Below, piece by piece: positions 973-52,769 of a stretch of DNA of 64,000 bases. How positions within the stretch are numbered: position 1 is the first letter of the stretch; every line of letters starts with the position of its first letter. The translations under genes were made by a program, and so were the position numbers. The stretch comes from Nocardioides aurantiacus (GTDB lineage: Bacteria > Actinomycetota > Actinomycetes > Propionibacteriales > Nocardioidaceae). Location: assembly GCF_003752505.1 (NCBI RefSeq), contig NZ_RKHO01000001.1:1426001-1490000 (forward strand), given 5' to 3'. The notes under the pieces are model-generated. The model had not been told where the DNA came from. It did not search any database and was given only the letters and a program-made list of their open reading frames with translations.

Positions 973-1015
973 GGGAGCAAGTCTCACGTCGCGGACAGGC
1001 GCCCACAAATCTCGG

Positions 1016-1030
1016 TCTCATGCAGTGAGA
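1016..1030. promoter_or_regulatory. Inverted repeat TCTCA-N5-TGAGA between the sulfite reductase leader and glyA
   Basis: A 15-bp near-palindrome with a further half-site (TCTCA) at about 982-986. It lies upstream of the leader peptide on the minus strand and about 60 bp upstream of the glyA -10 on the plus strand. It is a candidate operator for a sulfur or one-carbon regulator; no specific regulator can be named. Confidence 0.35.
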
Positions 1031-1090
1031 TGCGTGTCCGCATATTGGACGCGACGGTCCGCCCCCGGTGGCCCCGCCGAGGGGCCGCTC

Positions 1091-1096
1091 TAGGCT
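1091..1096 (+). promoter_or_regulatory. -10 element (TAGGCT) of a leaderless glyA promoter
   Basis: TAGGCT is followed by six bases and then the glyA ATG, so the predicted transcription start is the A of the start codon. There is no Shine-Dalgarno sequence before this start. Confidence 0.6.
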
Positions 1097-1102
1097 GGTC
1101 CC

Positions 1103-2551
1103 ATGACTGACGAGCGCCTGGCCAAGACCGTCTCCTCGGCGTACGACGCCGCCCTCGAGGTCATCGCCTCGGTCGAGCCGCGTGTGGCGGAGGCCACGCG
1201 CCAGGAGCTGGCCGACCAGCGCGGATCGCTCAAGCTGATCGCCTCGGAGAACTACGCCTCGCCGGCCACGCTGCTCACGATGGGCACCTGGTTCAGCGAC
1301 AAGTACGCCGAGGGCACGGTCGGCCACCGCTTCTACGCCGCCTGCCAGAACGTCGACACCGTCGAGTCCCTCGCCGCCGAGCACGCCCGCGAGCTCTTCG
1401 GTGCGCCCTATGCCTACGTGCAGCCGCACTCGGGCATCGACGCCAACCTCGTCGCCTTCTGGTCGATCCTGGCCAACCGCGTCGAGACGCCCACGCTGCA
1501 GCGCCTCGGCGCCAAGAACGTCAACGAGCTGACCGAGGAGGACTGGGAGACGCTGCGCCACGAGTTCGGCAACCAGCGCCTGCTGGGCATGTCGCTGGAC
1601 GCCGGTGGTCACCTGACCCACGGCTTCCGCCCCAACATCAGCGGCAAGATGTTCCACCAGCAGCAGTACGGCACCGACCCCGAGACCGGGCTGCTCGACT
1701 ACGACGTGGTCCGCGCCAAGGCCCAGGAGTTCCGCCCGCTCGTGCTGGTGGCCGGTTACTCGGCGTACCCCCGCCGGGTGAACTTCGCGAAGATGCGCGA
1801 GATCGCCGACGAGGTCGGCGCCGTGCTGATGGTCGACATGGCCCACTTCGCCGGGCTGGTCGCGGGCAAGGTGTTCACCGGCGACGAGGACCCGATCCCG
1901 CACGCCCAGATCGTCACCACGACGACCCACAAGTCGCTGCGCGGCCCGCGCGGGGGCCTGGTGCTGGCCCAGGAGGAGTTCGCGGCCGACGTCGACCGCG
2001 GGTGCCCGATGGTGCTCGGCGGCCCGCTCTCGCACGTGATGGCGGCCAAGGCCGTCGCGCTGGCCGAGGCCCGCCAGCCGGAGTTCCGCACCTACGCCCA
2101 GCACATCGCCGACAACGCCAAGTCGCTCGCCGAGGGCTTCCTGACCCGCGGCGCGAAGCTCGTCACCGGCGGCACCGACAACCACCTGGTGCTGCTCGAC
2201 GTCTCCGGCTTCGGCCTGACCGGACGCCAGGCCGAGTCGGCGCTGCTCGACGCCGGCGTGGTCACCAACCGCAACTCGGTCCCCGGCGACCCCAACGGCG
2301 CGTGGTACACCTCCGGCATCCGCTTCGGCACCCCCGCGCTCACCACCCGCGGCTTCGGCCACGAGGAGTTCGACACCGTCGCCGACCTCGTCGTCGAGGT
2401 GCTCTCGAAGACCCGGCCCGGCACCAACAAGGCCGGTGCCCCGTCGAAGGCGACGTACGCCACCGAGGACGGCGTCGCCGACCGCGTCAAGGACCGCGCC
2501 GCGGAGATGCTCGACCGCCACCCGCTCTACCCGGGTCTCCAGCTCTCCTGA
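1103..2551 (+). CDS. glyA: Serine hydroxymethyltransferase (long actinobacterial form)
   Basis: PLP enzyme interconverting serine plus tetrahydrofolate with glycine plus 5,10-methylene-THF, the main supply of one-carbon units. The 482-residue product carries the N-terminal [10 protein letters not shown] motif (about 45-54), the VGHRFYA cofactor region and [14 protein letters not shown] with the PLP lysine at about 277. It is some 60 residues longer than the common 420-residue enzyme; the extra segment lies around residues 126-205, between the first PLP contacts and the active-site lysine, and is a known feature of the longer form. The ATG has no ribosome binding site but a -10 element 6 nt upstream, indicating a leaderless message. 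It stands alone, and the downstream 32-bp repeat array separates it from a convergent gene. Confidence 0.95.
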
Positions 2552-2554
2552 CCG

Positions 2555-2803
2555 CGAGCGGGCAGTTCTGCTGGTCCCGAGCGCGCCGACCGGGCAGTTC
2601 TGCTGAGCCTGATGACGCCGACCGGGCAGTTCTGCGGCGGCCAGTCCGGCGGACGACGGCAGAACTGCCCGCTCGGCGGTCCTGGCGCGCGCAGAAGTGC
2701 CCGCTCGGCGGTCCTGGCGCGCGCAGAAGTGCCCGCTCGGCGGTGCTGGAGCGCGCGCAACTGCCCGGTCGACGGTGCTGGCGCGCGCGGAAGTGCCCGG
2801 TCG
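2555..2803. repeat. Array of eight 32-bp repeat units, three forward then five inverted
   Basis: Forward units begin at 2555, 2587 and 2619 (core CGASCGGGCAGTTCTGC); inverted units end at 2675, 2707, 2739, 2771 and 2803 (core GCAGAAGTGCCCGCTCGG and variants). The spacing is exactly 32 bp throughout. The halves meet at about 2647, so a transcript from either side can fold into a long hairpin or several alternative ones. It fills the whole gap between the convergent genes glyA and the response regulator, the usual place of a bidirectional terminator. A second array of the same unit lies at 51002-51207. I do not recognise it as a named repeat family. It is not a CRISPR array: the interspersed bases are part of the repeat and the units change orientation. 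Confidence 0.9.
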
Positions 2804-2808
2804 GCGGG

Positions 2809-3495
2809 TCAGCGCCTCCAGCCGTAGGCCACCTCGGGTCGGCCCGCGCCGCCGTAGCGAGGACGACGCTCGACCGCGCCGTCGTCGGCGAGGTGCTCGA
2901 GGTAGCGGCGGGCGGTGACGCGGGAGACGCCGACGGCCTCGGCGACCTCGGAGGCCGACATCGGTGAGGGCGTACGACGCAGCACGTCGGTCACCTGCCG
3001 CAGCGAGTCCGGGCTCATCCCCTTGGGCAGCGACGACCCGGTGCCCCGGGCCCGGAGCGCGCCGAACAGCTGGTCGACGTCGTCCTGCACCACGTCGTCG
3101 GCGGTCCCGCGCAGCTGCTCGCGGTAGGCGGCGTACTGCTCGAGCTTGGTGCGGAACGCCGCGAACGAGAACGGCTTGAGCAGGTAGAGCACGACGCCTT
3201 GCGACACCGCCCGTCGTACGACGTCGCTGTCGCGCGCCGACGTGACCGCGATGACGTCGCACAGGTGGCCGGCCGCCCGGATCCGCTGCAGCAGCCCGAG
3301 GCCGTGGCCGTCGGGCAGGTGCATGTCGAGCAGCACGAGGTCGACCTCGCCGGGGCGGGAGTCGAGCAGCCGCATCGCCTCGCCGGCCGACCGGGCGACG
3401 CCGGCGAGGTCGAACCCCGCCACCCTCCCGACGTACGCCGCGTGGGCCTCGGCCGCGATCTCCTCGTCCTCGACGACGAGCACCCGGACGCTCAC
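2809..3495 (-). CDS. CitB/DcuR-type response regulator
   Basis: Cytoplasmic DNA-binding half of a two-component pair. The 228-residue product has a receiver domain (about 1-120) with the acidic pocket VVEDEE at the start, the phospho-acceptor Asp in VLLDMHLPDG (about residue 57), a conserved Thr/Ser in VTSAR and Lys in LLKPF. A C-terminal winged-helix region follows (MSASEVAEAVGVSRVTARRY), as in the CitB/DpiA/DcuR family. The GTG start overlaps the kinase stop by 4 nt (GTGA), so the pair is translationally coupled. The neighbouring divergent DctA-type transporter suggests it controls dicarboxylate uptake; this is an inference from context. Confidence 0.88.
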   Translation of the reverse strand: MSVRVLVVEDEEIAAEAHAAYVGRVAGFDLAGVARSAGEAMRLLDSRPGEVDLVLLDMHLPDGHGLGLLQRIRAAGHLCDVIAVTSARDSDVVRRAVSQGVVLYLLKPFSFAAFRTKLEQYAAYREQLRGTADDVVQDDVDQLFGALRARGTGSSLPKGMSPDSLRQVTDVLRRTPSPMSASEVAEAVGVSRVTARRYLEHLADDGAVERRPRYGGAGRPEVAYGWRR

Positions 3496-5081
3496 GAGGG
3501 CGGCCCCAGCGTCACGGTGAACCGCGCTCCGCCCAGGTCGGAGGAGTCCACCTCGACCGCGCCGCCGTGCCGTCGGGCGACCTGGCCCACGAGCGCGAGG
3601 CCCAGGCCGCGGCCCTCGACCGCCTTGGTCGACCAGCCGCGCTCGAGGACCCGCTCCGCGTCCTGGGGAGGTACGCCGGGACCGCTGTCGTCGACCTCCA
3701 CGAGCAGCCCCGCCCCGCGGTCCTCCAGCCGCAGCCGCACCTGCCGCCGGTCGGAGCCGGCCACCGCGTCGAAGGCGTTGTCGAGCAGGTTGCCCACCAC
3801 CGTGACCAGCTCGCGCGACGGCACGGCCACGTCGGCGCCCACGGAGCCCGTGAGCCGCAGCTCGACGCCCTGCTCGGCGGCCTGGGCGGTCTTGCCGAGC
3901 AGCAGCGCCGCCAGCGCGGGCTCCTCGACGGCGCCCACCACCTCGTCGGCGAGCGCCTGCGCCACGGCGAGCTCCTCGGTGGCGAACTCGACGGCGTCCT
4001 CGTGGCGGCCGAGCTCGATCAGCCCGACCACGGTGTGCAGCCGGTTGGCCGCCTCGTGGTTCTGCGCACGCAGCGACGCGGTCAGCCCGCGCACGAGGTC
4101 CAGCTCGCCGGTCACCGACTGCAGCTCGGTGCGGTCGCGGACGGTGACGACGGCACCGACCTCGGCGCCGCCCCAGTAGGCGGGAGCCGAGCTGATCACC
4201 AGCACCTGGTCGCGCAGCACGTAGAGGTGGTCGCTCTCGGCGACCCGGCCCCGCGCCGCCTCGACCATCGCCGGCGGCAGCCCGAGGTCGTCGAAGCGCC
4301 GCCCCAGCACGTCGTCGGGGAGGCCGAGCAGCCGTCGGGCCTCGTCGTTGACCAGCTGCACGCGGCCGGCCTCGTCGAGCAGCACCAGTCCCTCGCGCAC
4401 GGCGTGCAGCACGGCGCGGTAGTACTCGTACATCCGGGTGATCTCGCGCTCGCCCATCCCGTGGGTCTGCCGCCGCAGCCGCCGCGAGATCAGCCAGGCG
4501 CCGGCCAGCCCCACCACCAGCGCGCCCAGCGCGGCCAGCCCGATGGAGGGCAGGTCGCCGAGCAGCTGCTGCTGGATCCGGTCCAGGGTGATGCCGACCG
4601 AGACCAGCGCGACGACGCGACCGCCGTCCTCGACGGGCACGACCGCCCTCACCGAGGGGCCGAGCGTGCCGGCGTACTCCTGGGTGAAGGGGCGTCCCTG
4701 CGGTGCGGTGCCCAGGTCGCCGATGAACCTCTCCCCGATGCGGTCCGGGTCGGGGTGGGTGAAGCGGGTGCGGTCCAGCGCCATCACCACCACGAAGTCG
4801 GTGTCGGTGTCGGCGCGGACCTCCTCGGCGTACGGCTGCAGCGTCCGCGACGGGTCCGCACCGACCACGGCGGTGCGCACGGTGGGGGAGTCGGCGAGCG
4901 ACTCCGCGACCGCCAGGGCCTGGTCGCGGGACTCCGCGCGGACGTCGCGGCGGGCGTCGACGGCGGCCAGTGCCACGGCGCTGACCACCAGGGCGAGCAC
5001 CACCAGCACCTGGAGGAGCAGGATCTGCCGGGCCACGGGGGAGTCCCGGGGACCGCCGCGCCGTGCCATGCGCCGCATCAT
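3492..5081 (-). CDS. CitA/DcuS-type sensor histidine kinase
   Basis: Membrane sensor of C4-dicarboxylates or citrate in related systems. It has a first membrane helix near the N-terminus (LLLQVLVVLALVVSAVAL), an extracellular PDC-like sensor region of about 140 residues containing RFTHPDPDRIGERF, a second helix (IGLAALGALVVGLAGAWLI), a cytoplasmic PAS domain, a dimerisation segment with the phospho-His in QNHEAANRLHTVVGLIELG, and an HATPase_c domain with the N-box NLLDNAFDA and G-boxes DSGPGVP and GRGLGLAL. ATG codons at 5081, 5078 and 5069 are all possible starts; none has a clear Shine-Dalgarno sequence. It lies divergent from dctA and upstream of its regulator with a 4-nt overlap. Confidence 0.88.
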   Translation of the reverse strand: MMRRMARRGGPRDSPVARQILLLQVLVVLALVVSAVALAAVDARRDVRAESRDQALAVAESLADSPTVRTAVVGADPSRTLQPYAEEVRADTDTDFVVVMALDRTRFTHPDPDRIGERFIGDLGTAPQGRPFTQEYAGTLGPSVRAVVPVEDGGRVVALVSVGITLDRIQQQLLGDLPSIGLAALGALVVGLAGAWLISRRLRRQTHGMGEREITRMYEYYRAVLHAVREGLVLLDEAGRVQLVNDEARRLLGLPDDVLGRRFDDLGLPPAMVEAARGRVAESDHLYVLRDQVLVISSAPAYWGGAEVGAVVTVRDRTELQSVTGELDLVRGLTASLRAQNHEAANRLHTVVGLIELGRHEDAVEFATEELAVAQALADEVVGAVEEPALAALLLGKTAQAAEQGVELRLTGSVGADVAVPSRELVTVVGNLLDNAFDAVAGSDRRQVRLRLEDRGAGLLVEVDDSGPGVPPQDAERVLERGWSTKAVEGRGLGLALVGQVARRHGGAVEVDSSDLGGARFTVTLGPPS

Positions 5082-5245
5082 GCCGTACGCCGGGCGCCGT
5101 GAACCGGGCCCCGCCGCGCCAGCCGCCGCCGGGGTCCCACCCGGTGAACACAACCTACGAAAGGGTGACGGCAGTCACAGGGGGTCGCAGGATGTGGTCC
5201 AGGGCACACGCCCGTGACGCCGCACGACCAAGAGCCGGAGGACGC

Positions 5246-6637
5246 ATGAGCAGCACCGACACCCAGGGGACGACGGTCAAGAGGGACCGCACCCACTACC
5301 TGTACATCGCGGTGATCGTCGCGGTGGTCCTCGGCATCATCGTCGGCTTCGTCGCCCCCGACTTCGCGGTGAAGCTGAAGTGGATCGGCGAGACCTTCGT
5401 CGCCCTGGTCAAGATGATGATCCAGCCGGTCATCTTCTGCACCCTCGTCATCGGTGTCGGCTCGGTCCGCAGTGCCGCCAGCGTCGGCAAGGTCGGCGGG
5501 CTCGCGCTCGGCTACTTCCTGACCATGTCGACCTTCGCGCTCGCCATCGGCCTGGTCGTCGGCAACCTGATCGACCCGGGCGAGGGCCTCAACCTCACCG
5601 ACGAGACCGCGGGCGTGGGCGCCGAGCAGGCCGAGGGCGCCGGCTCCACCACCGAGTTCATCACCGGCATCGTGCCCGACTCGCTGTTCTCCTCGCTGAC
5701 CTCGGGCGAGGTGCTGCAGACCCTCTTCGTGGCGCTGCTCGTCGGCTTCGCGCTGCAGGCCATGGGCCGCTCCGGCGAGCCGATCCTCCGGGGCATCGGC
5801 CACCTCCAGCGCCTCGTCTTCCGGGTGCTCGCGATGGTGATGTGGGTGGCGCCGATCGGTGCCTTCGGCGCCATCGCCGCGGTGGTCGGCGAGACCGGCC
5901 TGGACGCGCTGAAGAGCCTCGCGGTGCTGATGGGCGCGTTCTACCTGACCTGCTTCATCTTCGTCTTCGGCGTGCTCGGCACCATCTTGAAGCTGGTCAC
6001 GGGCGTCAACATCCTGAGCCTGTTCAAGTACCTCGCCCGCGAGTTCCTGCTCATCGTCTCGACCTCGTCCTCGGAGTCCGCGCTGCCCCGCGTCATCGCG
6101 AAGATGGAGCACGCCGGCATCGACAAGAGCACCGTCGGCGTGGTCATCCCGACCGGCTACTCCTTCAACCTCGACGGCACCGCGATCTACCTCACGATGG
6201 CCTCGATCTTCATCGCCGACGCGCTCGGCAAGCCGCTGTCGATCGGCGAGCAGATCTCGCTGCTGGTCTTCATGGTCATCGCCTCCAAGGGCGCGGCGGG
6301 CGTCTCCGGCGCCGGTCTGGCCACCCTGGCCGGCGGCCTGTCCTCGCACCGGCCCGAGCTGCTGGACGGCGTCGGCCTCATCGTCGGCATCGACCGGTTC
6401 ATGTCCGAGGCCCGGGCGGTCACCAACTTCGCCGGCAACGGCGTCGCCACGGTGCTGGTCGGTCACTGGACCGGCACGCTGAACCGCGAGCGGCTCGACG
6501 AGGTGCTCGCGGGGCGGGCGCCGTTCGACGAGATGACGATGCTCGACGACGACCACTCCGAGGGCGACCGCGCCAGGGACCTCGACGCCCCGAGCACCAG
6601 CACCGGCAGCACGACGAGCAGCAGCACCACCGGCTGA
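5246..6637 (+). CDS. dctA: C4-dicarboxylate:cation symporter, DctA/GltP family
   Basis: Inner-membrane Na+ or H+ symporter of the DAACS family importing succinate, fumarate, malate or related acids. The 463-residue protein has about eight hydrophobic segments and the two family signatures: the serine-rich hairpin STSSSESALPRV and the substrate-binding region VIPTGYSFNLDGTAIYLT, plus RFMSEARAVTNFAGNG near the end. The ATG at 5246 has GGAGGA 5 nt upstream. The C-terminus ends in an acidic and then Ser/Thr-rich tail. It is divergent from a CitA/CitB-like sensor pair, which probably activates it. Glutamate transport is the main alternative specificity. Confidence 0.9.
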   Translation: MSSTDTQGTTVKRDRTHYLYIAVIVAVVLGIIVGFVAPDFAVKLKWIGETFVALVKMMIQPVIFCTLVIGVGSVRSAASVGKVGGLALGYFLTMSTFALAIGLVVGNLIDPGEGLNLTDETAGVGAEQAEGAGSTTEFITGIVPDSLFSSLTSGEVLQTLFVALLVGFALQAMGRSGEPILRGIGHLQRLVFRVLAMVMWVAPIGAFGAIAAVVGETGLDALKSLAVLMGAFYLTCFIFVFGVLGTILKLVTGVNILSLFKYLAREFLLIVSTSSSESALPRVIAKMEHAGIDKSTVGVVIPTGYSFNLDGTAIYLTMASIFIADALGKPLSIGEQISLLVFMVIASKGAAGVSGAGLATLAGGLSSHRPELLDGVGLIVGIDRFMSEARAVTNFAGNGVATVLVGHWTGTLNRERLDEVLAGRAPFDEMTMLDDDHSEGDRARDLDAPSTSTGSTTSSSTTG

Positions 6638-6690: not shown

Positions 6691-7950
6691 TCGTGCGTCC
6701 CGTCGTGCGGCTCGGTCCGGTCCAGCAGGTCCAGAGAGTACGCCGCCAGCGTGGCCCGCCGTCGGGCGAGGACCAGCAGGTCGGGGGTCGGCTCGGATCC
6801 GAGGTGCTCGAACGGGACCGCGGAGAGGCCGGCGTACAGCACCAGCTGCAGCGCGTGGGCGCGGCGTACGACGTCGGCGGGGGTGTCGTCGCCCTCGGCC
6901 CGCAAGCCCGTGACGTACGCCGCGAGGCAGGCCTCGTCGCGCGCGGCCAGCGCCCCGACGTCCTCCTCGACCGAGCGGCCGGTCTGCACGTCGCCGACGA
7001 GCAGCTGGGCCAGGTCGAACCCGACCGGAGCCGCGCCGAAGAAGCCGTAGTCGATCAGCACGAACCCCTCCACGCCCGTCGAGGTGAGCAGGTTGTGGGG
7101 GCAGGCGTCGCCGTGCGAGGCGAGGAGCGGCATCGCGGCGAGCTCGGCGGTCAGCGCCTCGGCGCGGTGGGCGGCGCCGCGCAGGCCGTCACGCACCGCG
7201 GCGAAGGGCCCGGCGAGGAGCGGGTGCTCCCAGAGCCCGTCGTCGAGGAGCGCCGGGAGCACCTGCCCGGCCAGTCGCCCGTGCAGGTAGCTCCACACCG
7301 ACAGCCCGTGGCCGACGTGGCCCGCGGCCTCGCGCACCCCGGGGCTCGCGGCCAGCCGGCCGAGCAGGTGGGCGGCGACGACGTAGCGGTCCAGCCCCCA
7401 GGGCCGCGGGCGGGTCCGCACCTCCGGCAGCCAGATCGCGGCCGACAGGTCGTCGAGGTCCTCGACCAGCAGCGCGCGCGGCATCGCGAGACCCTCGGGC
7501 AGCCGGGCGCCCAGGTCGGAGCGGTAGGCCAGCGGCTCGGTGCGCCACGGCAGGCCCGCCGCCGCGAGCTCCCGCATCTCCGGTGGCACGAACGCGAAGG
7601 CCGGGTGCCGGCTCCAGCACTGCACCTGCTTGACGAACACCGACCACGTCCGGACGCTCGTGCCCCCGTCGGTCGTGCCCCCGTCGGTCGTGCCCCCGTC
7701 GGTCGAGCCCCCGTCTCCGGGGGTTCGGGCTCGTCGAGACGAGCGCCTCGCCCCGCACCCAGTGCCGCGCCGCGGTGGTGATCGCGTCGAGGTCGTAGTC
7801 GACGGGCTCGACCCTGACGCCGCGCAGCCGGACGTGCTCGGGCCGCTCGACCAGCAGGTCGGCGACGAGGGTGGTCAGCGTCTCCTCGTCCACGGCGGCG
7901 GGTCCGAGCGGCTCCAGCGCGCGTGCAGGAGTGGCGGTGGGCTGGGCCAT
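6681..7950 (-). pseudogene. Aminoglycoside-phosphotransferase-fold kinase, frame-disrupted
   Basis: Kinase-like phosphotransferase of unknown small-molecule substrate. The N-terminal part (7950 to about 7740) is in one frame, with RBS GGAGG before the ATG and the sequence YDLDAITTAARHWVRGEALV. The rest (about 7660 to 6681) is in the +1 frame with SVFVKQVQCWSRHPAF, the catalytic loop HGDACPHNLL and the metal-binding IDYGFFGAAPVGFDLAQLL. The two parts are separated by a palindrome-rich segment and three copies of a 15-bp repeat that break the frame. Together they would make about 420 residues of normal domain content. It is either a decayed gene, a contingency locus or a sequencing error in this GC-rich hairpin. 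It is divergent from a MarR-type regulator. Confidence 0.65.
7659..7744. repeat. Three 15-bp tandem repeats plus palindromes inside the phosphotransferase gene
   Basis: Units CGTGCCCCCGTCGGT occupy 7659-7673, 7674-7688 and 7689-7703. They are followed by a degenerate unit and by CGAGCCC...GGGCTCG with an inner CCCCC/GGGGG stem, then GCTCGTC-GA-GACGAGC. The tandem unit is five codons long and so does not itself shift the frame; the flanking palindromic piece does. It looks like a small palindromic element inserted in the coding region. Confidence 0.7.
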
Positions 7951-12664: not shown

Positions 12665-13571
12665 CTAGGCCGCACAGCTCGGGCAGCGACCGACGTGGGT
12701 ACGCATCTGTGCAGCTGCGGTGAGGACCTCTCGGACGTGATCGGGGTCGAACATGACGTCCTCCCACGAGAAGCGCAGCACGATCCAGCCGTCCACGACC
12801 AGGAGGTTGTAGCGACGGGCATCCCGGCGCAGGTCGGCGCGACCGCCGTGCCACTCGAAGGAGTCCGCCTCGACCACGATGCGGAGGTCGTCGTCGACGA
12901 GGTCGGGGCGCACCGTCTGCCGCGTGCCGATCACGACGCGCTGGGGGACCAGTCTCAGGCCGGGGACGTCGAGGGCGAGGTGGCGCAGCACGGACTCGAA
13001 GGGGTCGGGCGGCACGTCCGTCCGCCCGACCGAGGACGCGGCGCACCTTCGCGGCCCCGGGCCCCTGGGCGGTCGCGGCCACGCGCGCGAGGACCTGCGG
13101 AGGTACGCCGCTGCGGAGCGCGGAGTCCGCGACCGCGAGGCCCTCGTCGTCCGGCAGCTGCCGGACGCACTGCTCCAGCGTCGTCTCGACGTCGGTCGCC
13201 ACGCCGTCGCGCACCTGCTCGGGCAGGAGCGTGCCGCGGTGCACCTCCGCGCGCCGACGTTGGTCGGGCGTCAGCCGTCGGCTCCTGCTGAGCAGGACGT
13301 GGGGCCTGGTGGGGACGGTCGTGACCGCCCAGCCGTGCCACAGCGCCGCGCTGGTCAGGCAGAGCACGCCTCGGAGGCCGTGGGCGACCGCCGTGGCCTG
13401 GTCGCAGGACCTGAGCGTGAGGCAGCCACGCCCGGAGGCCAGCAACGAGCCGTCGGCCAGCGCACGGTCCACCTGGCCCCGCGACGTCGCGGCGACGGCC
13501 GAGGCGCGCTGGGCCACGCCGCCCTGCTGCTCGACGTACGCCACGACCAGGCCCATCTGCCCACCCTGCAT
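12665..13571 (-). pseudogene. AbiEi-antitoxin-like plus DUF559 (Vsr-like) protein, frame-disrupted
   Basis: The family combines an N-terminal winged-helix antitoxin-like domain with a C-terminal DUF559 domain of the Vsr/PD-(D/E)XK endonuclease fold; functions are mostly unproven. The N-terminal part (13571 to about 13025) reads RGQVDRALADGSL and GLAVADSALRSG. The C-terminal part (about 13015 to 12665) reads PFESVLRHLAL, RPDLVDDDLRIVVEADSFEWHG, split here between the Asp of RPDL and EADSFEWHG, then RRDARRYNLLVVDGWIVLRF. Normal alignment requires a one-base frame change at about 13010-13030 in GTCGGGCGGACGGACG. This is either recent inactivation or a sequence error; both halves are otherwise intact. 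Confidence 0.6.
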
Positions 13572-48610: not shown

Positions 48611-50992
48611 GTGGCCGAGGAGCCGGTGGTCACCGACCACCCCGTCGACGAGGGGCCTGCGCCCGCCCGTGACGACGCTCCAGCGCCGAGCCCGGCGCCG
48701 CTCCCCGTCGCATCCCGCCCTGCCCGGCCCGCCGAGCGCGCCCCCGCCCTGTCGGGCCGCGGTGTCCGCGCCCGCCTGGCCCGCATCGGCACCAGCAAGC
48801 AGGTCGGCAACCCGGTCCTGGAGCCGCTGTTCCGCACCGTGCGCGCCAACCACCCCAAGGCCGACCTGGCGCTGATCGAGCGGGCCTACGACGTCGCCGA
48901 GCTCCACCACCGCGGCCAGAACCGCAAGAGCGGCGACCCCTACATCACCCACCCGCTCGCGGTGACGACCATCCTGGCCGACATCGGCATGACCGAGCCC
49001 ACGCTCGTGGCGGCCCTGCTCCACGACACGGTCGAGGACACGCCCTACACGCTCGACCAGCTGCGCAAGGACTTCGGCGACGAGGTCGCGCTGCTGGTCG
49101 ACGGCGTCACCAAGCTCGACAAGGTCAAGTACGGCGACTCCGCCCAGGCCGAGACCATCCGCAAGATGATCGTGGCGATGAGCAAGGACATCCGCGTCCT
49201 GGTCATCAAGCTGGCCGACCGGCTCCACAACATGCGCACCCTGCGCTACGTCAAGCAGGAGACGCAGGAGCGCAAGTCCCGCGAGACCCTCGAGATCTAC
49301 GCCCCGCTGGCGCACCGACTGGGCATGAACACACTCAAGTGGGAGCTCGAGGACCTCGCGTTCGCCACCATGCACCCCAAGATCTACGACGAGATCGTGC
49401 GGCTCGTCGCCGAGCGCGCGCCGTCGCGCGACCAGTTCCTGACCGAGGTGACCGGTCAGGTCGACCGCGACCTCAAGACCGCGCGGATCAACGCGCGGGT
49501 GACCGGCCGGCCCAAGCACTACTACTCGATCTACCAGAAGATGATCAACGGCGGTCGCGAGTTCTCCGACATCTACGACCTCGTCGGCATCCGCATCCTG
49601 GTCGACTCCGACCAGGAGTGCTACGGGGTCCTCGGTGTGCTCCACAACCGCTGGAACCCCCTGCCCGGGCGGTTCAAGGACTACGTCGCGATGCCGAAGT
49701 TCAACATGTACCAGTCGCTGCACACCACGGTGATCGGTCCCTCCGGCAAGCCCGTGGAGATGCAGATCCGCACCGTCGCGATGCACCGCCGGGCGGAGTA
49801 CGGCGTCGCCGCGCACTGGAAGTACAAGGAGGACTCCCGCAACGGGGTCGACACCGAGCGGGCCGCCGGCTCCGACGGCGACCTGCAGTGGCTGCGGCAG
49901 CTCCTCGACTGGCAGAACGAGGTCGAGGACCCGGGGGAGTTCCTGGACTCGCTGCGCTTCGAGATCAACAGCGCCGAGGTCTTCGTCTTCACCCCGCGCG
50001 GCGACGTCATCGGCCTGCCGATCGGCTCGACGCCGGTCGACTTCGCCTACGCCATCCACACCGAGGTCGGTCACCACACCATCGGGGCCCGGGTCAACGG
50101 GCGGCTGGTGCCGCTGGAGTCCGCGCTCGAGCACGGCGACGTCGTCGAGGTCTTCACCTCCAAGTCGCCCAACGCCGGGCCGTCGCGCGACTGGCTGCAG
50201 TTCGTCACCTCGCCGCGGGCGAAGAGCAAGATCCGCCACTGGTTCACCAAGGAGCGGCGCGAGGAGGCCATCGAGCAGGGCAAGGAGCAGATCGGCCGCC
50301 TGCTGCGCAAGGAGGGGCTGCCCCTCAAGCGCGTGATGACGCACGACTCGCTGACCCAGGTGGCCAACGAGCTGCGGCTGCCCGACGTCTCCGCGCTCTA
50401 CGCCGCGGTCGGCGAGGGCAACCTCGGCGCCCAGACCGTCGTCCGCAAGGTGATCGAGGTCGCCGGCGGCAAGGACGGTGCCGCGGAGGACCTGGCCGAG
50501 GCGGTGACGATCACCCGGCCCCGGCGTACGTCCTCGGCGGGGGTGGACTCCGGCATCGTCGTCAAGGGCGTCAGCGACGTCCTGGTCAAGCTGGCCCGGT
50601 GCTGCACGCCGGTCCCCGGCGACGAGATCCTCGGCTTCGTCACCCGCGGCGACGGCATCTCGGTGCACCGCCGCGACTGCACCAACGCCACCTCGCTGCT
50701 CAGCCAGCCCGAGCGGCTCGTCGACGTCGAGTGGGCCCCGACCTCGCAGTCGACGTTCCTGGTCCAGATCATGGTGGAGGCCCTCGACCGGGCTCGGCTG
50801 CTCTCCGACATCACCATGGTGCTCTCCGACCAGCACGTGAACATCCTCTCGGCCAGCCTCTCCACCAGCCGCGACCGCGTCGCCAAGAGCCGCTTCGCCT
50901 TCGAGATGGGCGACCCCAAGCACCTCGGCGCCATCTTGAAGTCGGTGCGCCAGGTCGACGGCGTCTTCGACGCCTACCGCGTCACCCACTGA
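48611..50992 (+). CDS. relA: Bifunctional (p)ppGpp synthetase/hydrolase
   Basis: 793-residue long RSH protein controlling the stringent response. In order: a Pro/Ala-rich N-terminal 50 residues; the HD hydrolase domain with [20 protein letters not shown] and [13 protein letters not shown] (HDxxED about 138-143), intact and thus hydrolase-competent; the synthetase domain with the [21 protein letters not shown] region (seen as [12 protein letters not shown]) and EMQIRT; TGS ([14 protein letters not shown]); helical and [10 protein letters not shown] zinc-finger segment; and a C-terminal ACT domain. GTG start with GGAGG 8 nt upstream and TAGACT at about 48569. It is followed by the second 32-bp repeat array. 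Confidence 0.96.
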
Positions 50993-51001
50993 CCAGCCAG
51001 C

Positions 51002-51207
51002 CGAGCGGGCAGTCGTGCTCGCCTCAGGTACGCCGAGCGGGCAGTCGTGCTCGTCTCAGGTACGCCGAGCGGGCAGCTCTGCCGGCGTGCACCGACACAA
51101 CTGCCCGGTCGGAGTCCTCAGACGGGACACAACTGCCCGGTCGGAGTCCTCAGACGCGACACAACTGCCCGGTCGGCGCGCTCAGATGTGACACAACTGC
51201 CCGGTCA
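51002..51207. repeat. Second 32-bp repeat array, three forward then four inverted units
   Basis: Forward units begin at 51002, 51034 and 51066 (CGAGCGGGCAGTCGTGC type); inverted units end at 51111, 51143, 51175 and 51207 (ACAACTGCCCGGTCGG type). The period is exactly 32 bp, and core, orientation order and genomic context (between convergent genes, here relA and the DUF349 gene) equal those of the array at 2555. The last unit contains the stop codon of the DUF349 gene (51207-51205), so the array has extended into or captured a gene end. Confidence 0.9.
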
Positions 51208-52650
51208 GGAGAAGTCGGACGCCGCCTGGCGGGCCATGTCGAGGAACTGCTGGCGTGAGGCGAGCTGGGACTCGAGGTCCTTGACGCGACGGTCGTCCCC
51301 GGCGGCGCGGGCCTTCTCGAGGTCGGCCTCGAGACCGGCGACCGCACGCTCGAGCTGTCCCAGCATGTCGTCGGCGCGTGCCGACTTCTCCGGGTCGCTG
51401 CGCTTCCACGCGTCGTCCTCGACCTGGCGAATGGCCTGCTCGACCTTGCGCATGCGGCCCTCGAGGGTCTTGATCTGGTCGCGCGGCACCTTGCCCGCCG
51501 CGTCCCACCGGTCGGCCAGGTCGCGGAAGGCGCGCTTGGTGGCGTCGAGGTCCGTGACCGGCAGCAGCGCCTCGGCTTCGACCAGCAGTGCCTTCTTGGT
51601 CTCGGCGTTCTCGGCGAACTCCTTGTCCTGCTCGGCGTTGGCGGCGTCACGGGCACCGAAGAAGACGTCCTGGGCGGCGCGGAAGCGCTGCCACAGCGGC
51701 TCCTCGACGTCGCGCGGGGCGGGACCGGCGGACTTCCAGTCCTGCATCAGCGACCGGTAGCGCGTCGAGGTGGGCCCCCACTCGGTGGACCCGCTCAGCG
51801 ACTCGGCCTCCGTGACCAGCCGCTCCTTGACGACCCGGGACGACTCCCGCTTCTCGTTGAGCTCGTTGAAGTGCGCCTTGCGGCGACGGGTGTACGCCGT
51901 CCGCGTGCTCGAGAACCGGTGCCACAGCTCGTCGTCCTGGCGCTTGTCGAGCCGGGGGAGCGCCTTCCACTCCTCCAGGAGGTCGCGCAGCCGGTTGACG
52001 CCGTTGCGCCAGTCCTGGCCGGTCGAGACCGACTCGGCCTCGGTGACGATCTGCTCCTTGCGCGCGCGTGACTCCTCCTGCTTGCGGGCCCGGTCGGCCC
52101 GGCGCTGGCCGCGCTGCACGCCGAGCAGAGGTCGCAGCGCGTCGAGGCGGGCCGAGAGCCCGACGAGGTCGCCGACCGCCCGGGGCTCGACCAGCAGGTC
52201 GGAGACCTTCTTGAGCGAGGTCGAGGCCTCGTCGGGGGAGAGGGCGCCGTTGCGGATGCGCTGCTCGAGCAGCTGCACCTCGAAGGCCAGGGCGTCGTAG
52301 CGCTGGGTGAAGAACGCCAACGCCTCCTCGGGGGTGCCCTCGGGGAACTGCCCGACCTCGCGCTCACCGTCGGGGGTGAAGACGAACACCGTGCCGTCCT
52401 CCCGCACGCGACCGTGGTCGGTCTCCAGCGCGGAGTCGGCGGCCGGGGTGCGGGCCGGGGCGGCCGGAGCCGGCGCCTGGGGTGCCGACGGAGCCGAGGG
52501 GGCCGCGGGGGCCGTGGGAGCCGTGGGGACGGCAGCACGCGGAGGTGCGGGCACGGGCGGCGCGGGGGCCGGGGGAGTGGCCGGGGAGGTCTCGGACGGT
52601 CGAGGACCGTCGGGTCCGGGGGAGTTGCCCTGCGCGGTCACGTTCGCCAC
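51205..52650 (-). CDS. DUF349 repeat protein
   Basis: 481 residues. The first 75 are Pro/Ala-rich and disordered; about 80-115 include FVFTPDGEREVGQFPEGTPEEALAFF, seen as VFTPDGEREVGQFP; the remainder is a highly charged helical array of DUF349 repeats, each with a W-x2-GPAPRD-type (WKSAGPAPRDVEEPLWQRF) or AAGKVPRDQIKTLEGRM core and D-LW-RFR. DUF349 proteins are thought to bind ribosomes or RNA; function in actinobacteria is not established. GTG at 52650 chosen; GTG 52641 is the alternative. Its place between relA and the glyoxalase gene replaces the ppiB found there in mycobacteria. Confidence 0.85.
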   Translation of the reverse strand: MANVTAQGNSPGPDGPRPSETSPATPPAPAPPVPAPPRAAVPTAPTAPAAPSAPSAPQAPAPAAPARTPAADSALETDHGRVREDGTVFVFTPDGEREVGQFPEGTPEEALAFFTQRYDALAFEVQLLEQRIRNGALSPDEASTSLKKVSDLLVEPRAVGDLVGLSARLDALRPLLGVQRGQRRADRARKQEESRARKEQIVTEAESVSTGQDWRNGVNRLRDLLEEWKALPRLDKRQDDELWHRFSSTRTAYTRRRKAHFNELNEKRESSRVVKERLVTEAESLSGSTEWGPTSTRYRSLMQDWKSAGPAPRDVEEPLWQRFRAAQDVFFGARDAANAEQDKEFAENAETKKALLVEAEALLPVTDLDATKRAFRDLADRWDAAGKVPRDQIKTLEGRMRKVEQAIRQVEDDAWKRSDPEKSARADDMLGQLERAVAGLEADLEKARAAGDDRRVKDLESQLASRQQFLDMARQAASDFS

Positions 52651-52769
52651 ACCTGCTTCGCGTCGAGTCGTTGGCGGTCTAGCGCTGCAATCGTAGCCAT
52701 GCCCGGGGCACCGGCCGGAGGCCAGTAGGCTGGCTCGGTCCACGACCCGACCCCGCAGGAGACAGACAG

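What the first reader, a model, noticed from the sequence alone, without database searches (positions are those of the whole stretch)
2555..2803. An exactly 32-bp-period, orientation-switching intergenic repeat array
Eight units of a 32-bp element fill the gap between glyA and the convergent response-regulator gene: three forward (starts 2555, 2587, 2619) then five inverted (ends 2675, 2707, 2739, 2771, 2803), with no slippage in period. Core CGASCGGGCAGTTSTGC is conserved; the other half of each unit drifts. Arms in both orientations mean any transcript crossing it can form one long or several alternative hairpins. A second array of the same design lies at 51002-51207. The 3-forward/n-inverted layout and exclusive position between convergent genes point to a maintained family that may act as a bidirectional terminator, an RNA-duplex buffer against convergent transcription, or a protein-binding platform. 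I know of no described family that matches.
Basis: seen in the sequence. Interest (0 to 1): 0.78.

Follow-up and report, generated by a model that had tools for sequence, protein, structure and literature searches.

The report
Helix-phased repeat arrays at gene ends
Short DNA repeats spaced by about whole turns of the double helix sit in two facing arms right after the ends of genes in some soil actinobacteria, which looks more like a landing strip for an unknown DNA-binding protein than like an RNA hairpin.

Summary
The array at 2555-2803 is real. It belongs to a dispersed family: 13 loci in this genome, matches in 20 of 341 Nocardioidaceae genomes. A sister family has a 22-bp period (matches in 26 of 335). 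The unit is a near-invariant core, (CGC)CGASCGGGCASTT, then a species-specific stretch, then an unconserved rest. Arms usually follow a gene in its own sense: 133 of 178 arm ends (32-bp type) and 105 of 134 (22-bp type) follow a same-sense stop codon, and 48 of these 238 first units contain it. Position between convergent genes is preferred, not exclusive. The two arms of a locus are not more complementary to each other than to arms of other loci, so RNA pairing is not supported as the conserved function. The distance between opposing cores is quantised in helical turns, about 10.5-11 bp, in both families. Best reading: polar, helix-phased sites for an unidentified DNA-binding protein, probably a two-way transcription barrier at gene 3' ends. 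Placement resembles REP elements, but the unit is not palindromic and no RAYT transposase was found (0 of 21 genomes). My searches found no described family that matches.

The parts
2555..2635 (+). + arm of array 1: unit cores at 2555-2571, 2587-2603, 2619-2635, exact 32-bp period; 3 nt lie between the glyA stop codon and the first core
2636..2658 (.). centre between the arms; innermost opposing cores 44 bp apart in core-start coordinates, 40 bp from core centre to core centre
2659..2803 (-). - arm of array 1: cores at 2659-2675, 2691-2707, 2723-2739, 2755-2771, 2787-2803; 5 nt lie between its outer end and the stop codon of the response-regulator gene
2809..3483 (-). response-regulator gene followed, in its own sense, by the - arm
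   Evidence: L035 4310-4984
51002..51082 (+). + arm of array 2: cores starting at 51002, 51034, 51066
51095..51207 (-). - arm of array 2: cores ending at 51111, 51143, 51175, 51207; the TGA of the outermost unit (51205-51207) is the stop codon of the - strand gene
48611..50992 (+). RelA/SpoT-type gene (name recalled from its sequence, not searched) followed by the + arm of array 2
51205..52743 (-). gene of unassigned function followed by the - arm of array 2 (start codon uncertain)

Best explanation
The array is a set of same-polarity binding sites for an unidentified sequence-specific DNA-binding protein. The sites are spaced by about whole helical turns so that sites of both arms lie on about the same face of the DNA. 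As a rule one arm follows the stop codon of a flanking gene in that gene's sense direction, so an elongating RNA polymerase meets the sites from the same side. The most likely job is a polar, two-way transcription barrier or insulator at gene 3' ends, preferentially between convergent genes. Shown: anatomy, placement, polarity, helical quantisation, and no overall excess complementarity between the arms of a locus. Inferred: that a protein binds, that it binds DNA rather than RNA, and that the effect is on transcription.
For: Period: of 489 neighbouring same-arm gaps in 112 distinct arrays, 443 are 32 bp, 19 are 31, 4 are 33 and 23 differ. In 90 arrays of the sister family 370 gaps are 22 bp, 5 are 21, 4 are 23, 40 differ, and 30 of those 40 are 44, 66 or 88. 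Arm-to-arm distance is quantised by the helical turn, one value per site: 32-type 43 sites, R=0.67 at 10.5 bp and 0.72 at 11; 22-type 51 sites, R=0.62 at 10.5; jitter null reached in 0 of 3000 trials in both; mean phases at 10.5 bp are -1.1 and +1.3 bp, close to whole turns. A stricter unit definition, not reduced to one per site, gives R=0.78 (46 arrays) and 0.72 (47), the best of all periods from 6 to 20 bp. Polarity: 133 of 178 and 105 of 134 arm ends follow a same-sense stop codon. The core is shared by 14 genomes while the next bases are species-specific; in the three genomes checked the consensus is nearly the same in both arms, as expected if sites track a changing trans-acting factor. 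Duplex energy and mean identity show no extra complementarity within loci.
Against: No binding protein is identified. Quantisation in the 22-bp family could partly reflect modules of 11 bp (core 11 + linker 11), and four of its sites lie off the peaks at 26-27 bp. Counting only the 19 distinct distances of the 32-type, the jitter test is weak (p=0.058). Arm sizes are correlated in the 32-type (rho 0.49, p=2e-5, 67 arrays) though not in the 22-type (0.11, p=0.43, 59 arrays), which a pairing model would also predict. A few unit positions do match better within loci of the 32-type (positions 6, 16, 17, 31; z 2.4 to 4.0, of 32 positions). Several innermost +/- pairs form near-perfect hairpins, and both window arrays fold much better than shuffles (z -4.92 and -7.66). 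3 of the 32-type and 7 of the 22-type arrays do not have a simple order of arms. The glyA junction carries no array in nine of 13 genus loci parsed, so the array is dispensable there.
Confidence: 0.4

Rival explanations
1. The arrays are REP-like dispersed selfish repeats without host function. They are spread and homogenised by ectopic gene conversion, perhaps driven by the endonuclease genes (DUF222-HNH, DUF559/MTES_1575) that nest next to or between the arms.
For: Patchy distribution (20 of 341 genomes). Species-specific consensus over the loci of a genome. In G228, 6 of 10 DUF222 genes lie just downstream of a listed array arm in the same orientation, 2 of 5 in G207 (one search compared; array lists are capped, so these are lower bounds). 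AbiEi/DUF559-type genes lie between the arms at one 32-type site in 6 species (Pfam-tested in 2, L037 and L149; the other 4 by resemblance of the printed sequence) and at a second, 22-type site (L272, L284, both Pfam-tested). The glyA array is reduced to one unit in the genome with the most similar GlyA.
Against: DUF222 is in all 16 genomes tested, 6 of which had no match to either array type, and 0 of 5 copies in the own genome are at arrays. MTES_1575 matches occur in 23 of 23 array-positive and 21 of 23 other genomes. No Y1 transposase in any of 21 genomes. A selfish repeat does not predict helical-turn quantisation of the arm-to-arm distance.
Confidence: 0.25
2. RNA element: the two arms pair in the transcript to form a long or alternative hairpin that terminates transcription or stabilises mRNA 3' ends from both sides.
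For: Facing arms just after stop codons; strong predicted folding of both window arrays; near-perfect central hairpins in some loci (L093, L111, L157, L226); one genus-mate (G014) has a single hairpin of the core at the M13-peptidase site (L169); arm sizes correlated in the 32-type; a few unit positions match better within loci.
Against: Arms within a locus pair no better than exchanged arms: ungapped 0.821 against 0.792 for innermost units (31 loci, p=0.12), 0.835 against 0.854 and 0.856 against 0.851 for the next two ranks (31 and 18 loci). Duplex energy is weaker within loci in both families (-63.95 against -66.49, n=52; -37.16 against -40.35, n=39). No T-tract terminator in window 1000-5300. 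21 of the 77 plus-to-minus transitions listed are more than 110 bp long, several with genes inside. Helical quantisation is not expected for RNA.
Confidence: 0.2
3. Chromosome-structure sites: strong topoisomerase (gyrase) or nucleoid-protein sites that absorb the positive supercoils between convergent genes, like E. coli BIME-2 (recalled).
For: Preference for convergent and codirectional 3' ends, tandem phased sites, modest number per genome (13 own loci, at least 35 in G228).
Against: Matches in only a minority of related genomes, though gyrase is universal (recalled); species-specific sequence; polarity not required by this model. Not tested further.
Confidence: 0.12

Closest known systems
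REP / BIME elements (GTAG- and CGTC-tagged; PMC3733652, search listing and five passages seen)
   Same: Dispersed, intergenic, mostly downstream of genes between convergent or codirectional ORFs, often in facing orientation, termini often supplying the stop codon of a flanking ORF; several families species-specific.
   Different: Units here are not palindromic and carry no GTAG or CGTC tag in the consensus; 22- or 32-bp tandem period; no RAYT (Y1) transposase in 21 genomes tested.
Iterons of plasmid replication origins (recalled)
   Same: Directly repeated sites about two helical turns apart, on one face of the helix.
   Different: Chromosomal, many loci per genome, at gene ends, two facing arms; no replication initiator noticed beside them.
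Arrayed polar transcription terminators bound by protein, such as the Sal boxes of TTF-I (recalled)
   Same: Tandem, oriented protein sites downstream of genes.
   Different: Those are eukaryotic rDNA elements; the protein here is unknown, the arms face each other, and termination was not shown.
Tandem repeats of archaeal Borg elements (PMC9879509, passages seen)
   Different: Borg repeats are perfect, A-enriched, about half inside ORFs; these are one diverged family with a fixed period and facing arms.
Intergenic TAACTGA direct repeats of Beggiatoaceae (PMC4679880, search listing and start of abstract only)
   Same: Dispersed sets of short intergenic direct repeats in a bacterial genome.
   Different: Different motif and host; spacing and arm layout not compared.

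Membership tests
REP/BIME | palindromic 20-40 bp unit | tested here: not met
   in the four genomes tested the most strongly covarying columns do not lay out a stem (in the two largest sets most are adjacent or near neighbours), and the consensus of 14 genomes has no dyad across the unit. The short GCAG-TT-CTGC dyad of some units is not kept across species.
REP/BIME | GTAG or CGTC tag at one end | tested here: not met
   neither in the printed consensus of 14 genomes (single units contain CGTC).
REP/BIME | RAYT (Y1_Tnp) transposase in the genome | tested here: not met
   PF01797 in 0 of 21 genomes, 15 of which have arrays of one type or the other; the control rings in 5 of 14 known genomes.
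REP/BIME | located at gene 3' ends, convergent or codirectional | tested here: met
intrinsic terminator | GC-rich hairpin followed by a T tract | tested here: not met
   0 sites in window 1000-5300 (shuffles 0.5 on average); array 2 and other loci not scanned. Hairpins without a T tract are not excluded.
RNA duplex/hairpin element | compensatory matching of the two arms within loci | tested here: not met
   overall; a few single positions do match better within loci.
iteron array | direct repeats phased by whole helical turns | tested here: met
   period 32 or 22 bp; facing arms phased too.
iteron array | lies at a replication origin and binds its initiator | tested here: not met
   199 arrays at 153 different gene junctions, so not confined to an origin; binding itself was not testable.

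The most novel reading that the evidence does not exclude
A new kind of bacterial transcription boundary: tandem, polar, helix-phased protein sites placed in one arm behind each of two genes, with both arms held on one face of the DNA. It would exist in two versions, of two and of three helical turns per site, and its recognition sequence would change from species to species together with an unknown protein.
Probability: 0.3. Interest if true: 0.85.

Novelty: new variant of a known kind. Interest (0 to 1): 0.62.

Why it matters
How GC-rich actinobacteria end transcripts and keep convergent genes apart with few classical terminators is poorly known (recalled). A dispersed, polar, helix-phased site family at gene ends gives a concrete, testable candidate. 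Its species-specific recognition sequence offers a natural handle for finding the protein. The geometric rule (about whole turns between opposing arms) makes a sharp prediction: half-turn insertions should break it.

Tried and rejected
RNA hairpin or duplex as the conserved function: rejected as the lead because arms do not match better within loci.

REP/RAYT membership: rejected.

Endonuclease genes as the obligatory partner: DUF222 and MTES_1575 occur with and without arrays, though they nest in arrays in some genomes.

Unit-internal RNA structure: no supporting covariation.

Same site with the 32-bp type in one species and the 22-bp type in another: 7 of the 30 sites shared between genomes. 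By my rough estimate, not computed in a call, a few such coincidences are expected by chance, so I do not lean on it.

Single records outside the family were looked at by eye: Cryobacterium lactosi and Arsenicicoccus bolidensis look like the same design; the Methanoregulaceae bin has two + units next to two Ns. All three are among the 112 arrays and were dropped.

Paper searches found no described family; most subscription papers are not in that library.

Full report
OBSERVATION. The window holds 15 matches at up to 3 mismatches, 8 in this array and 7 in the array at 51002-51207, against 2.71 expected and at most 7 in 100 shuffles. In the whole genome (4.06 Mb, one contig) the core at up to 2 mismatches gives 50 forward and 54 reverse matches, with 6 and 5 for the reversed control. 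Grouped by position these make 13 array loci, each with + units first (2-5) and - units second (2-6); the remaining scattered matches I took as chance.

DISTRIBUTION. A two-unit pattern at exact 32-bp spacing hits 9 of 24 genomes of the genus and, in a looser form, 20 of 341 genomes of the family, in 2 of 26 genera; the reversed control never matched in either call. A scan of one genome for each of 84,980 species gives 60 stretches, 57 of them from records named Marmoricola, Nocardioides or unnamed Nocardioidaceae/Propionibacteriales bins and 3 from Cryobacterium, Arsenicicoccus and a Methanoregulaceae bin. By matching contig lengths, G228 is Nocardioides sp. Soil805, G008 Marmoricola sp. URHB0036, G009 Marmoricola sp. 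Leaf446, G006 N. pocheonensis and G207 N. sediminis.

A SISTER FAMILY. Downstream of glyA in G018 lies an array of similar design with a 22-bp period and core CCGTTSASTTS. A two-unit pattern of it matches in 26 of 335 family genomes. In nine of these the reversed control matches at least as often; I put this down to the nearly mirror-symmetric core (inference), and I checked arrays in fetched DNA of most of the richer genomes. The two cores align (CCGGGCAGTTG against CCGTTGAGTTG), and the periods differ by about one helical turn.

ANATOMY. From 135 array calls in the loci given to, 112 distinct 32-type arrays remained after removing duplicates: 70 beginning with + and ending with - (3 of them, L086, L222, L247, with mixed order inside), 21 with only + and 21 with only - units. 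443 neighbour gaps are 32 bp, 19 are 31, 4 are 33, 23 differ. For the 22-type I used 89 loci (only part of those that exist) and kept 90 arrays, 52 in simple + then - order, 31 one-armed, 7 mixed; 370 gaps are exactly 22 bp, 5 are 21, 4 are 23, 40 differ (30 of these are 44, 66 or 88). Consensus over 14 genomes shows a near-invariant core, (CGC)CGASCGGGCASTT, a species-specific stretch at about positions 14-22, and an unconserved stretch at about 23-29; in the three genomes split by arm the consensus is nearly the same in both arms.

PLACEMENT. Genes were called with a simple codon model of my own. Of 109 32-type arrays (3 non-Nocardioidaceae dropped), two-arm arrays are 42 convergent, 26 codirectional, 1 divergent, 1 at an edge; one-arm arrays are 13 convergent, 16 codirectional, 10 divergent. 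All neighbouring gene pairs in the same fetched DNA, array junctions included, are 116 convergent, 472 codirectional, 108 divergent. 133 arm ends follow the stop codon of a same-sense gene (median 4 nt, 119 within 20 nt); 45 face a gene start. For the 22-type: two-arm arrays 34 convergent, 16 codirectional, 3 divergent, 6 edge; one-arm arrays 11 convergent, 14 codirectional, 3 divergent, 3 edge; 105 arm ends after a same-sense stop (82 within 20 nt) and 29 facing a start. In 18 of 133 and 30 of 105 cases the stop codon lies inside the first unit. So the rule is 'behind a gene, in that gene's sense', not 'between convergent genes only'.

TURNOVER. 199 arrays fall into 153 sites by flanking-protein similarity; 30 sites carry arrays in more than one genome (five 22-type arrays have no genome assigned and count as one), for example the rbpA-pgl type junction in 6 species (gene names recalled). 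At the glyA site, of 13 loci parsed out of 25, 32-bp arrays occur in G000 and G007 (with different unit sequence), a single unit remains in G009 (98% identical GlyA), a 22-bp array lies in G018, and none is seen in the other nine; G006, G004 and G011 show, by eye, a very short convergent gap without an array. At the M13-peptidase site 4 of 19 parsed loci (of 24) have arrays and one (G014) has a single hairpin. Arrays are therefore shared between species at some sites, but are optional.

RNA OR DNA. If the transcript hairpin were the function, the two arms of a locus should match each other better than arms of other loci in the same genome. Overall they do not: ungapped innermost units 0.821 against 0.792 (31 loci with close arms, p=0.12), next ranks 0.835 against 0.854 and 0.856 against 0.851 (31 and 18 loci), and 0.846 against 0.833 for innermost units of 12 loci with distant arms. 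Duplex energies are -63.95 within against -66.49 between loci (52 loci) and -37.16 against -40.35 (39 loci of the 22-type), that is, weaker within loci, with 0.9945 and 0.997 of permutations at least as stable as observed. Mean identity is 0.635 against 0.634 (56 loci) and 0.651 against 0.657 (43 loci); single positions of the 32-type go either way (6, 16, 17 and 31 better within loci, 26 worse). On the other side, both window arrays fold far better than shuffles (z -4.92 and -7.66), as facing repeats must, some central pairs are near-perfect hairpins, and arm sizes correlate in the 32-type (rho 0.49, 67 arrays) though not in the 22-type (0.11, 59 arrays).

HELICAL PHASING. The distance between the innermost opposing core centres is clustered: 32-type near 20, 30, 41, 52 and 63; 22-type near 12, 22, 32, 44 and 52, with four sites at 26-27 off the peaks. 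One value per site (distances up to 110 bp) gives R=0.67 at 10.5 bp and 0.72 at 11 (43 sites), and 0.62 at 10.5 (51 sites). Moving each value at random by up to 6 bp never reached this in 3000 trials in either family, and the mean phases at 10.5 bp are -1.1 and +1.3 bp, close to a whole number of turns. With stricter units, not reduced to one per site, R is 0.78 (46) and 0.72 (47), and the best period among 6-20 bp is 10.9 and 10.6; with exact 22-type cores only, R is 0.67 (29). The 19 distinct values of the 32-type alone give p=0.058. For the 22-type a modular origin (11-bp core, 11-bp linker) could give similar numbers; for the 32-type I see no such module. I take this as the best evidence for DNA-level recognition with the sites on one face.

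NESTED GENES. In G228 six of ten DUF222 genes start just behind a listed array arm, in its orientation, and two of five in G207; 0 of 5 in the own genome; the other genomes were not compared. AbiEi/DUF559-type (MTES_1575-like) genes lie between arms at one site in six species (Pfam-tested in two, by resemblance in four) and at a second site in the 22-type. Other between-arm genes look ordinary (GDSL lipase and a 6PGDH-like protein). DUF222 is in 16 of 16 genomes, 6 of them without a match to either array type; MTES_1575 matches occur in 23 of 23 array-positive and 21 of 23 other genomes, over the curated cut-off in 12 of 46. Y1 transposases are absent (0 of 21). So these genes look like lodgers rather than the engine.

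VERDICT. Polar, helix-phased binding-site arrays behind genes, most likely for an unknown DNA-binding protein acting as a two-way transcription barrier (0.4). Rivals are selfish repeats (0.25), an RNA element (0.2) and a topological site (0.12). Placement is REP-like, but the palindromic unit, the tag and the RAYT link were tested and not met. In the papers I could search (listings; passages of PMC3733652, PMC10589994 and PMC9879509) I saw no description of this family.

Noticed in passing
L263-L291 and L322-L381 (G015, G018, G023, G109, G136, G142, G156, G162, G189, G237, G238, G247 and others): A second array family with a 22-bp period (CCGTTGAGTTG core), matching in 26 of 335 family genomes; the stop codon TGA of the upstream gene lies inside the first core in 30 of 105 cases.
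   Followed up: yes
L224, L232, L234, L235, L239, L249, L252, L253 (G228): DUF222-HNH or other HNH endonuclease genes lie just behind single-arm arrays in the same orientation; of the copies I looked at, several share an upstream stretch and their flanks diverge right after the stop codon.
   Followed up: partly
L037 4262-5236 (own genome): An AbiEi/DUF559-type gene between the arms at the rbpA-pgl type junction; it is read in two frames here and has look-alikes at the same site in five other species.
   Followed up: partly
window 12716-12904 (-): A DUF559/MTES_1575-like open frame, not next to an array.
   Followed up: no
window 7658-7715: A 15-bp tandem repeat (TCGTGCCCCCGTCGG, 3.9 copies, 97% matches), with GC-rich sequence behind it.
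   Followed up: no
L072 (Cryobacterium lactosi), L081 (Arsenicicoccus bolidensis): Similar two-arm arrays with related cores outside the family (by eye), suggesting a wider actinobacterial distribution.
   Followed up: partly
arms of 32-type and 22-type loci: By duplex energy the arms of one locus pair less well than arms of different loci, which may mean that perfect palindromes are selected against.
   Followed up: partly
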